This document shows, piece after piece, positions 1,610 to 7,967 of a DNA stretch of 7,967 nucleotides. Location: assembly GCA_043809745.1 (NCBI GenBank), contig JBDROU010000020.1, forward strand, positions 1 to 7,967, in the 5' to 3' direction. The notes below the pieces were generated by a model. The model made no database searches. It was not told the origin of the DNA and saw nothing but the letters and a program-made list of their open reading frames with translations. Source of the DNA: JBDROU01 sp043809745 [NCBI: bacterium] (lineage in GTDB: Bacteria; Elusimicrobiota; JBDRMW01). Each line of letters starts with the position of its first letter. The first letter of the stretch is position 1. Position numbers and translations under genes: made by a program.

Positions 1610-1635
1610 CCCTCCGAAGCCTTGGCGAAGGAGGG
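1610..1635. repeat. GC-rich hairpin in the left repeat region
   Basis: CCCTCC (1610-1615) pairs with GGAGGG (1630-1635), and GCC (1619-1621) with GGC (1624-1626) around a TT loop. The two stems are separated by a symmetric GAA/GAA internal loop. It sits between two repeat blocks and is absent from the right-hand copy, so it looks like an insertion into the repeat. Confidence 0.6.
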
Positions 1636-1676
1636 GCGATTTTCCCATCATAGATGGACAGGGATGTTTTAGCGTC
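1634..1676 (+). repeat. Dispersed repeat core, left copy
   Basis: Positions 1634-1670 are identical, over 37 nt, to 7147-7183 in the same orientation. After one mismatch the match resumes for GCGTC (1672-1676 and 7185-7189). The core begins gggcgattttcccatc and contains GGACAGG at 1656-1662. An A-rich 19-nt block upstream (1577-1595) is also identical to 7120-7138. The two copies flank the efflux operon. Confidence 0.9.
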
Positions 1677-1979: not shown

Positions 1980-2240
1980 ATGAAAGGACCTAAGTTTTTT
2001 GGAAAAGCACCAGTAGGTACAAAAGGGCAAATAGTCATCCCTGCAGAAGCAAGGAAGGCATTGGGTATTAGTCCGGGGGATAGTGTAATGATTATTTCTG
2101 GTCCACCGCATCATAAGATGATCAGTATTATTCCTGAGGATGAGTTTAATAAATTTTTAAAGTTTTTAGAAGGCCACTTAAATATCATGAAGAAAGAAGT
2201 TTCTCCTAAAAATAAGGTCTCAAAGGGAAATAGAAAATGA
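1980..2240 (+). CDS. AbrB/SpoVT/MazE-type swapped-hairpin transcription regulator
   Basis: An 86-residue DNA-binding protein that probably acts as a dimer and controls its own operon. Residues 10-52 form the swapped-hairpin domain: VGTKGQIVIPAEARKALGI at 12-30 followed by SPGDSVMI at 31-38, very close to the family consensus. The C-terminal half (about 53-70) looks helical, and the tail (71-86) is Lys/Arg-rich and probably disordered. The ATG at 1980 is chosen because AGGAGG (1969-1974) lies 5 nt upstream. Longer in-frame starts at TTG 1875 and ATG 1908 fall on the promoter -35 and near the transcription start, so they are unlikely. Its stop codon overlaps the ATG of the TolC-like gene by 4 nt (ATGA), implying translational coupling. 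Such proteins can also be antitoxins (MazE type), but no toxin gene follows, so a regulatory role fits better. Confidence 0.85.
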   Translation: MKGPKFFGKAPVGTKGQIVIPAEARKALGISPGDSVMIISGPPHHKMISIIPEDEFNKFLKFLEGHLNIMKKEVSPKNKVSKGNRK

Positions 2241-6768: not shown

Positions 6769-6784
6769 ACAGGTGCGAGGGAGA

Positions 6785-6804
6785 GGACGCAGGGATGCGA
6801 GTCC
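6785..6804. repeat. Small hairpin with GGGA loop
   Basis: GGAC (6785-6788) pairs with GTCC (6801-6804) and GCA (6789-6791) with TGC (6796-6798), with a GA bulge. It is weaker than its neighbours but shares their layout of outer stem, bulge and inner stem. Confidence 0.5.
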
Positions 6805-7058
6805 AGCCATTTGGGCGGGACGAGCAGACTGAAGCCGAATCAGTGAATGAGTGTACTTGCCTGGGCTACTTCAAAGAAGGGTTTAAGAAATCTGTAGAAA
6901 ACAATCCAAGGGTCACTCGAAAGTACGGATGTAGACTTTTTTCGGCGAATTTTTGCCCTTCGACGTCCCTGAGGACTCCCGGAGGTCGTAATTATTTGAT
7001 TTTGTTGACATTGTGATTTTCTTTCTGATTCTGAAAACAAAAAATTAAAAGGGGGCGA

Positions 7059-7086
7059 TCCCGAGAAATTTGAAAAATTTCCGGGA
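7059..7086. repeat. Hairpin with 7-bp inner and 5-bp outer stem, GAA loop
   Basis: GAAATTT (7065-7071) pairs with AAATTTC (7075-7081), and TCCCG (7059-7063) with CGGGA (7082-7086), with a single A bulge at 7064. Confidence 0.8.
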
Positions 7087-7092
7087 CAAAGT

Positions 7093-7118
7093 CCTGGGAA
7101 TTCTACGAATTCCACAGG
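7093..7118. repeat. Hairpin with 7-bp inner and 4-bp outer stem, TAC loop
   Basis: GGAATTC (7097-7103) pairs with GAATTCC (7107-7113), and CCTG (7093-7096) with CAGG (7115-7118), with a single A bulge at 7114. It follows the previous hairpin by 6 nt. Confidence 0.8.
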
Positions 7119-7146
7119 GAAAAATCAAAAGAAAAAATCTCTTTTT

Positions 7147-7189
7147 GGGCGATTTTCCCATCATAGATGGACAGGGATGTTTTTGCGTC
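7147..7189 (+). repeat. Dispersed repeat core, right copy
   Basis: Positions 7147-7183 are identical to 1634-1670; one mismatch and five more identical bases follow. The upstream A-rich block 7120-7138 matches 1577-1595. In this copy the two blocks are 8 nt apart; in the left copy 38 nt apart, because a hairpin sits between them. Confidence 0.9.
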
Positions 7190-7363: not shown

Positions 7364-7392
7364 TTGACATTTATCATCTATAGTGATAACAT
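7364..7392 (+). promoter_or_regulatory. Promoter of the winged-helix/nucleotidyltransferase gene
   Basis: Consensus TTGACA (7364-7369), 17-nt spacer, then TAACAT (7387-7392) preceded by TGA, giving an extended -10. Transcription should start near 7399. The whole element is overlaid by operator palindromes. Confidence 0.75.
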
Positions 7393-7410
7393 TATCACCA
7401 AAAGTGATAA
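7371..7410 (+). promoter_or_regulatory. Two tandem 19-bp operator palindromes, 21 bp apart
   Basis: Operator 1 is TTATCAT (7371-7377), 5-nt spacer, GTGATAA (7383-7389). Operator 2 is TTATCAC (7392-7398), 5-nt spacer, GTGATAA (7404-7410). They repeat every 21 bp, two helical turns, so two dimers could bind the same face. The first covers the -35/-10 spacer and the second covers the start site up to the ribosome site. The most likely ligand is the HTH protein encoded just downstream (autorepression), which is inference. Confidence 0.8.
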
Positions 7411-7422
7411 GGAGGGTTTGAA

Positions 7423-7587
7423 ATGCAAGATAAAATAATTAAACTGTTCTACGACGATATATACTCTGAGTTTACAATAAACGAGTTAGCTACTAAGACA
7501 AAGATTTCCTATAGTTATGTTCACAGACAAGTCGAAGAGCTAGAAGGTAGGGGGTATTTTAATCGTAAGTCAGCGCACAAATCGTAA
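7423..7587 (+). CDS. Winged-helix DNA-binding N-terminal part of a split HTH-nucleotidyltransferase gene
   Basis: The ATG at 7423 has a near-perfect AAGGAGGG ribosome site (7409-7416) 6 nt upstream. The frame runs 54 residues to TAA 7585-7587. Residues about 18-41 (TINELATKTKISYSYVHRQV to E41) read as a helix-turn-helix with recognition helix SYSYVHRQVEELE, typical of winged-helix or MarR-like regulators. The protein ends just where the beta-hairpin wing should follow. Dropping one G from the G5 run at 7550-7554 restores a normal wing (GRGILIVSQRTNRKYCKPN) and joins it to the nucleotidyltransferase frame downstream. The last ten residues in the present frame are therefore probably out of frame. 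It probably represses its own promoter. A genuine stand-alone 54-residue protein is possible but less likely. Confidence 0.75.
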   Translation: MQDKIIKLFYDDIYSEFTINELATKTKISYSYVHRQVEELEGRGYFNRKSAHKS

Positions 7588-7967
7588 ATATTGCAAACCT
7601 AACTACAGCAATCCTGAAGTAAAGACAAGCTTTGTTAAAATATCGAATCAAATAGCTGACGATTTTCTAAAGAAAAGGGATAAGATTTTTTTTATTGTTG
7701 AAAAGCTTCTTTCGGTATTACCTAAAAAGACTGATTTTAATCTATTATCTGTTGTTTTATTTGGATCTTTAGCTAAAGGGACAGCTTTTAAAAAAAGCGA
7801 TATAGATCTTTTTATCCTTGTCCCTTCAAAAAAGAAATATGATGAAGCTATTGAGATGGAATGTGTTGCTTTATCAAAAGGCTTTGGCGTTGAAATCAAC
7901 CCTATAGTTTCCGAACCGACAAATTTATTAACAATGTTAAAAGATAAGGAGAATAATGTAGGTAAGG
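7544..7967 (+). pseudogene. Minimal nucleotidyltransferase (MNT, Pol-beta fold) part of the same gene, frameshifted and cut by the window end
   Basis: A second frame, +1 relative to the HTH frame, is open from 7544 to the window edge. It has no ATG, GTG or TTG before the domain core, so it cannot start on its own and should be the C-terminal part of the upstream HTH gene. It contains the nucleotidyltransferase signature LFGSLAKGTAFKKSDIDLFI at about 7757-7816 (GS, then D and D eleven and thirteen residues later) and a later acidic candidate in GVEINPIV. These metal-binding carboxylates mark MNT-type enzymes, including AMP-transferring antitoxins that pair with HEPN toxins and stand-alone regulators. 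Between wing and enzyme lies a helical linker (NPEVKTSFVKISNQIADDFL) common in HTH-MNT fusions. If repaired, 181 residues of the product lie in the window. It could be a truly broken gene, a programmed frameshift or a sequence error. Confidence 0.75.

What the first reader, a model, noticed from the sequence alone, without database searches (positions are those of the whole stretch)
7544..7587. One extra G in a G5 run splits an HTH-nucleotidyltransferase gene
The HTH frame (7423-7587) and the nucleotidyltransferase frame (open from 7544) overlap. The second has no start codon before its catalytic core. Removing one G from 7550-7554 joins them into a normal winged helix plus MNT fusion. This could be phase variation in a regulatory enzyme, a programmed +1 shift near AGG-GGG, a decaying gene, or an indel error.
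Basis: partly seen in the sequence, partly recalled or inferred. Interest (0 to 1): 0.7.

Follow-up and report, generated by a model that had tools for sequence, protein, structure and literature searches.

The report
Frame-broken antitoxin of a mobile TA module
A gene that relatives keep as one intact protein, probably the antidote half of a mobile toxin-antidote pair, is split here by one extra base, most likely a fresh mutation or a sequencing slip rather than a special regulatory trick.

Summary
The frame break is real in the given sequence. Frame 1 (7423-7587) encodes a winged-helix start and frame 2 (7544 to the window end) the nucleotidyltransferase; frame 2 has no usable start before its catalytic motif. 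All 13 relatives found that span the junction read through it in one frame. The gene is the 205-aa HTH-MNT half of a two-gene module; its partner, a 178-aa HEPN protein, follows it in relatives and would lie past the window end here. The nearest known kinds are PADLOC's candidate PDC-M05 and 'Class II' HEPN/MNT pairs. Relatives give a new clue: HEPN is broken in 7 of 15 copies, HTH-MNT in 1 of 13, and that one sits beside a dead HEPN. So the antitoxin tends to outlive the toxin, and the window looks like the next step of that decay, or an indel error near a contig end. dN/dS of 0.066 to the nearest relative means the break is recent. Phase variation and programmed frameshifting are not supported. 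One oddity: the junction AGGGGGTATTTT resembles the RF2 frameshift signal AGGGGGTATCTTTGAC in that relative's own prfB, but lacks its slippery sequence and stop.

The parts
7364..7408 (+). TTGACA (7364-7369) and two ATCA-N7-TGAT inverted repeats (7373-7387 and 7394-7408): likely promoter and autoregulatory operators
   Evidence: Both repeats in 12 of 13 rows (window plus 12 relatives; L009 has one) and TTGACA in 12 of 13 (not L045). L008 has no upstream sequence. Promoter and operator roles are inferred.
7411..7416 (+). GGAGGG, likely ribosome-binding site of the HTH-MNT gene
   Evidence: Sequence; similar purine-rich stretches in most rows
7423..7587 (+). Frame 1: winged-helix N-terminus (residues 1-43 homologous to relatives, then 11 more residues and TAA)
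   Evidence: the relative's model puts the recognition helix at 30-42 and wing strands at 46-59
7549..7560 (+). AGGGGGTATTTT: the junction, holding the G5 run at 7550-7554; resembles the RF2 (prfB) frameshift signal
   Evidence: 1 match, mean 0.01 expected; relatives; prfB
7544..7967 (+). Frame 2: MNT nucleotidyltransferase with intact GSX10DXD motif; runs off the window

Best explanation
This is the antitoxin gene (HTH-MNT) of a horizontally spread HTH-MNT/HEPN module in an Omnitrophota-like genome, broken by a recent one-base gain in a G run at the joint between the recognition helix and the wing. The intact protein would repress its own promoter through two inverted repeats (inferred) and would neutralise the downstream HEPN protein by nucleotidylation (inferred from type VII systems). 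The break leaves a 54-aa fragment without the wing and an MNT frame without a start. By the polarity seen in relatives, the HEPN gene past the window end is predicted to be already dead. Shown: the break, intact relatives, the HEPN partner in relatives, decay polarity and recent constraint. Inferred: TA function, order of loss in this genome, host group, and that the extra base exists in the organism.
For: 13 of 13 relatives spanning the junction are in frame there, and 12 of 13 have the whole visible gene unbroken. HEPN is intact in 8 of 15 and broken in 7 of 15. Among 13 loci with both genes visible: HEPN only broken 6, HTH-MNT only 0, both 1 (L045), neither 6; sign test 6:0 gives p = 0.031. 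The seven HEPN lesions are all different by inspection. The nearest relative, L001 (93% DNA), has a HEPN remnant of about 20 matching residues. Window-L001 dN/dS is 0.019/0.288 = 0.066, close to L001-L002 at 0.059, so constraint held until recently. Promoter-like element, repeats, ribosome site, start codon and GSX10DXD are intact. L045 carries an in-frame G4 at the same place, a natural precursor state. Four other window genes (about 5.4 kb) show no frame break by ORF length and family matches, which argues against a generally indel-rich sequence.
Against: The HEPN gene lies outside the window, so its state here is unknown. No reads or second copy of this locus were available, so a real mutation cannot be told from an assembly error. 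The break lies about 410 bases from the window end, where contig quality may be lower if that is a contig end. Six relatives, L001 among them, keep HTH-MNT intact although HEPN is dead, so HEPN loss alone does not soon lead to this break. Two of the seven HEPN breaks (L003, L029) look like single frame shifts and might themselves be errors; without them the sign test is 4:0 (p = 0.125 by arithmetic, not a call).
Confidence: 0.6

Rival explanations
1. The extra G is a sequencing or assembly error near a contig end; the organism has an intact HTH-MNT gene.
For: It is the only lesion seen in an otherwise constrained gene, it lies in a homopolymer about 410 bases from the window end, and the family is shared at high identity among many genomes, so reads from several copies could be mixed in assembly.
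Against: Four long neighbouring genes show no frame break. A run of five is short for common indel error with accurate short reads (general knowledge; the technology here is unknown). The window also carries an adjacent A-to-G change, so it is not a simple copy of a known relative.
Confidence: 0.27
2. A programmed +1 ribosomal shift like that of RF2: an SD-like AGGGGG pauses the ribosome and a shift at the next codons restores the MNT frame.
For: AGGGGG-TAT-TTT has the SD-like element, spacer length and register of the RF2 site AGGGGG-TAT-CTT-TGA, and the shift needed is also +1. prfB of G001, G002 and G006 carries the exact RF2 signal and G005, G007, G009 and G021 close variants, 7 of 12 prfB loci, so such shifts probably work in these lineages. 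The 12-mer is expected 0.01 times in the window by chance.
Against: The slippery CTTT is TTTA here and no stop codon follows it; eight codons lie between TTT and the frame-1 stop. None of 13 relatives needs a shift. No stimulatory structure follows: folding z-score +2.35.
Confidence: 0.05
3. Phase variation: G4/G5 slippage switches the antitoxin on and off.
For: A G run lies exactly at the break, and L045 shows that G4 in frame is tolerated there.
Against: Five G is a short run for phase variation (general knowledge). Among 13 relatives only L045 has a G run of 4 or more at this spot, so no conserved switch exists. Switching off an antitoxin next to a live toxin would be harmful (inference).
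Confidence: 0.04
4. Two separate proteins: a small HTH protein and an MNT protein with its own start.
For: Stand-alone MntA antitoxins shorter than 150 aa are known (PMC7641770, passages read).
Against: No ATG/GTG/TTG start precedes the catalytic core in frame 2; all 13 relatives spanning the junction are fused; the wing would be cut off.
Confidence: 0.03

Closest known systems
PDC-M05 (PADLOC candidate defence system; PDC-M05A nucleotidyltransferase plus PDC-M05B HEPN)
   Same: Relatives L004 and L001 match PDC-M05A over residues 2-195 (E 2e-20 and 9e-18); HEPN of L004 and L005 matches PDC-M05B (E 1e-8 and 3e-9). Same two-gene layout.
   Different: Here the A gene is frame-broken and the B gene is not in the window. 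PDC-M05 is 59% archaeal among detected instances and its antiviral role is unconfirmed according to PMC12988326 (passages read); these copies are in bacterial records, mainly Omnitrophota.
Class II HEPN/MNT pairs (PF05168 + PF01909) of PMC7641770
   Same: PF05168 HEPN partner, MNT upstream, GSX10DXD kept (12 of 12 aligned relatives), a conserved tyrosine and no RX4-6H in HEPN (8 of 8 intact copies).
   Different: Fused N-terminal winged helix; the passages of that paper that I read leave open whether Class II pairs are TA systems.
Type VII TA, MntA/HepT
   Same: MNT motif and gene order, antitoxin first.
   Different: HepT's RX4HXY is absent; NCBIfam MntA_antitoxin scores 31.6 bits for intact L001 and 33.4 for the window's frame 2 against a cut-off of 60; HTH fusion.
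prfB (RF2) programmed +1 frameshift
   Same: AGGGGG, three-base spacer, register and +1 direction.
   Different: No CTTT slippery sequence and no adjacent stop codon.

Membership tests
PDC-M05 | A gene matches the PDC-M05A models over most of its length | tested here: met
   Relatives L004 and L001: residues 2-195 of 205. In the window both fragments match the same model PDLC04368: 15-63 in frame 1 (E 6e-4) and 89-175 in frame 2 (E 6e-8). No PADLOC cut-off was shown, so this is by E-value and coverage.
PDC-M05 | Adjacent HEPN gene matching PDC-M05B | tested here: inconclusive
   Met in the two relatives tested, L004 and L005; the window ends before it.
Class II HEPN/MNT (PF05168/PF01909) | PF01909 with GSX10DXD next to PF05168 HEPN without RX4H | tested here: met
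   PF01909 (window frame 2) and PF05168 (L004) above their cut-offs; motifs. The HEPN part was tested in relatives only.
Type VII MntA/HepT | HepT RX4HXY motif | tested here: not met
   No R-x4-6-H in 8 of 8 intact HEPN partners.
Type VII MntA/HepT | MNT gene reaches NCBIfam's MntA_antitoxin cut-off | tested here: not met
   31.6 bits (L001) and 33.4 bits (window frame 2) against 60.
Type VII MntA/HepT | Antitoxin nucleotidylates the toxin and neutralises it | not testable with these tools
   Needs biochemistry.
RF2-type programmed +1 frameshift | SD-like AGGGGG three bases before the slippery codon | tested here: met
   7549-7557 AGGGGGTAT.
RF2-type programmed +1 frameshift | Slippery CTTT (or a poly-T variant) followed by an in-frame stop | tested here: not met
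   TTTAAT; no adjacent stop. Elements as given in PMC12421855 (passages read).
Phase-variable contingency gene | Repeat tract conserved or length-variable among relatives | tested here: not met
   No relative has G5 at the spot; one of 13 has G4.

The most novel reading that the evidence does not exclude
The A-to-G change and the extra G together created an RF2-like SD-stimulated +1 frameshift site inside an antitoxin gene, so that full-length antitoxin is made at a low, regulated level: a frameshift-gated antitoxin caught at its birth.
Probability: 0.04. Interest if true: 0.75.

Novelty: new member of a known kind. Interest (0 to 1): 0.33.

Why it matters
The break itself is ordinary. What it led to is more useful: in a mobile HTH-MNT/HEPN family found in several candidate phyla, the HEPN gene is often dead and the HTH-MNT gene almost never. 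[quoted passage not shown] It gives a firm prediction for this contig: the HEPN gene just past its end should be dead.

Tried and rejected
Rejected: conserved programmed frameshift (no relative needs it), conserved phase-variable tract, two independent genes, downstream stimulatory RNA. The intact protein had no match in the phage collection; in the plasmid collection 23 records matched, all below 60% identity, and the DNA had no match. Two exact-pattern scans of viral contigs, one for the operator region and one for the junction, found nothing. Literature searches on antitoxin persistence returned 0, 1 and 3 papers with my terms, so I cannot say how well that polarity is documented; a search for Omnitrophota with HEPN and toxin-antitoxin found 0 papers. 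A structure model of L001's protein is good only for about residues 1-60, so no fold search was made.

Own errors and their repair: one search searched prfB loci on the plus strand only, although six of the 12 genes lie on the minus strand (redone on the right strand, which raised the loci with an RF2-type signal to 7 of 12). One search read L024 on the wrong strand and did not include L045 (redone). One search read L024, L029 and L045 as empty because alignment rows carried the same names (redone). One search picked wrong prfB frames for G001 and G010 (redone).

Full report
What is there. The window ends inside a gene. Frame 1 runs 7423-7587 (54 aa) and carries a winged-helix start; frame 2 is open from 7544 to 7966 and matches NTP_transf_2 PF01909 (E 2.5e-11). 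In frame 2 no ATG, GTG or TTG opens an ORF of 50 aa or more. No whole genome is held for the window. The neighbourhood looks like an ordinary bacterial chromosome segment: an anaerobic sulfatase maturase-like radical SAM gene, an AbrB/MazE-like gene, and OEP, HlyD and MacB export genes.

Relatives. One scan of genome contigs gave 11 loci: six records labelled Omnitrophota, one labelled Candidatus Aadella gelida (which recurs in the same class search), and one each labelled NPL-UPA2, Aerophobetes, Nitrospirota and Ratteibacteria. Draws of 384 genomes from the phylum and 384 from the class of G001 overlap (all nine matching genomes of the first recur in the second) and gave 9 and 11 matching genomes at E 1e-30. 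Of 17 genomes of G009's phylum one matched, and of 9 in the phylum shared by G005 and G010 two matched, all already known. New were G021 (L024), G183 (L029), G229 (L030) and G449 (L045). Of the 15 loci, 13 span the junction (L001-L010, L024, L029, L045); L011 and L030 start after it. In 13 of 13 the frame is continuous over the junction; in 12 of 13 the whole visible gene is unbroken (L008 lacks its first six codons at a contig edge); L045 has an in-frame TAG further on, at codon 83. The intact protein has 205 residues (206 in L010).

The lesion. L001 and L002 read ggta-gaggtatt, the window ggtagggggtatt: an A-to-G change, silent in the intact frame (AGA to AGG), plus one extra G. L045 has AGGGGT, four G in frame. 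The model of L001's protein (mean pLDDT 54.7, but 83-91 for residues 21-60) puts helix 30-42, then strands 46-51 and 54-59, so the break at codons 43-44 separates the recognition helix from the wing.

Age. With codons 43-44 left out, window and L001 differ at 8 nonsynonymous and 23 synonymous codons; dN 0.019, dS 0.288. L001-L002 gives 0.031 and 0.529. On the window branch, with L002 as outgroup, there are 7 nonsynonymous and 11 synonymous codon changes; on the L001 branch 3 and 9. One window change, D121A, falls at a position invariant in the 12 aligned relatives, inside the X10 of GSX10DXD. The gene was constrained until recently, with at most a hint of relaxation.

The partner. In relatives an ATG 17 bases after the HTH-MNT stop opens a 178-aa protein (189 in L030) matching Pfam HEPN PF05168 (L004, E 2.8e-7). 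PADLOC names the pair PDC-M05A/PDC-M05B. HEPN is intact in 8 of 15 (L004, L005, L006, L007, L010, L011, L024, L030) and broken in 7 of 15: L001 (about 20 residues left), L002 (deletion and frame change), L003 (frame shift), L008 (start and end lost), L009 (43 residues left), L029 (frame shift), L045 (16 residues left). With both genes visible (13 loci): HEPN only broken 6, both broken 1, HTH-MNT only 0, neither 6. The sign test gives p = 0.031; Fisher on 7/15 against 1/13 gives p = 0.038, though those counts are paired. L003 and L029 could be sequencing errors; without them the sign test is 4:0 (p = 0.125, arithmetic). This polarity is what a toxin-antitoxin pair predicts. Against a simple story, six loci with dead HEPN still keep HTH-MNT, so the gene may have some use of its own or the HEPN losses may be young.

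Regulation. Two ATCA-N7-TGAT repeats precede the gene in 12 of 13 rows (window plus 12 relatives; L009 has one), and TTGACA in 12 of 13 (absent in L045). The window has both. Autoregulation is inferred.

Mobility. HTH-MNT identity to G001 is 72-94% in ten genomes, while RF2 identity to G001 is 47-61% in the same ten. G005 and G021, in different phyla by the searches, share 95.6% HTH-MNT and 55% RF2. So the module moves horizontally. A serine recombinase follows HEPN in L024 (PF00239 E 3e-41, PF07508 E 2e-22), and remnants with a similar start follow in L002 and L003 by eye; I saw none in the other loci, which were not searched for it by profile.

The RF2 resemblance. AGGGGGTATYTT occurs once in the window, at 7549; mean 0.01 expected. 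Of 12 prfB loci over the family cut-off, three (G001, G002, G006) have AGGGGGTATCTTTGAC near the start and four (G005, G007, G009, G021) a close variant; in the other five (G003, G004, G010, G011, G183) my pattern found none near the start. In G001, G006, G007 and G021 the zero frame ends at the TGA and the +1 frame continues. The window has the SD-like part and spacing but not the slippery sequence or stop described in PMC12421855 (passages read). No downstream structure is predicted. I take it as a coincidence produced by two base changes in AGAGGTATTTT, with a small chance of being functional.

Papers. PMC7641770, PMC3710099, PMC12988326, PMC12421855 and PMC3920263 were seen as found passages only. 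PMC7641770 divides HEPN/MNT pairs into Class I (with RX4HXY) and Class II (PF05168, without it) and says Class II needs validation. The partner here lacks R-x4-6-H in 8 of 8 and has an invariant Tyr145. PMC3710099 lists HEPN-T (PF05168) with PDB 2hsb, which is also the only PDB chain that the HEPN profile finds (E 0.0015); the HTH-MNT profile finds only 9xbd_E (E 0.005). PMC12988326 calls PDC-M05 archaeal-enriched with unconfirmed antiviral role. PMC3920263 tells of a relB-parE copy whose antitoxin gene looks truncated, so antitoxin damage is known elsewhere.

Verdict. A known kind of two-gene module, with its first gene frame-broken recently or by error. Interest lies in the decay polarity across relatives and in the prediction about the unseen HEPN gene.

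Noticed in passing
window 6780-7140: Among 13 genomes searched, pieces of this intergenic stretch lie on the same contig as the HTH-MNT gene in G001, G002, G003, G005, G006, G007, G009 and G021, within a few hundred bases in G001, G003, G006 and G009. By eye it might be the tail of a GIY-YIG gene or a remnant of a mobile unit that travels with the module.
   Followed up: partly
window 1634-1676 and 7147-7189: A 43-nt direct repeat, 98% identical, in two intergenic regions.
   Followed up: no
L024:2-943 (minus strand): A serine recombinase (Resolvase plus Recombinase domains) directly follows HEPN; remnants in L002 and L003 by eye. It may be the vehicle of the module.
   Followed up: partly
L024, upstream of HTH-MNT: A further ORF pair that by eye resembles another MNT-HEPN pair; tblastn finds a weak HEPN match there (27.8%, E 4e-5).
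   Followed up: no
prfB loci L031, L036, L041 (exact); L032, L035, L037, L042 (variants): RF2 +1 frameshift signals near the start of prfB in 7 of 12 loci from these candidate-phylum genomes; five others showed none by my pattern.
   Followed up: partly
window 1980-2240: An AbrB/MazE-like gene (PF04014 E 6e-8) directly precedes the OEP, HlyD and MacB genes, as if it were their regulator.
   Followed up: no
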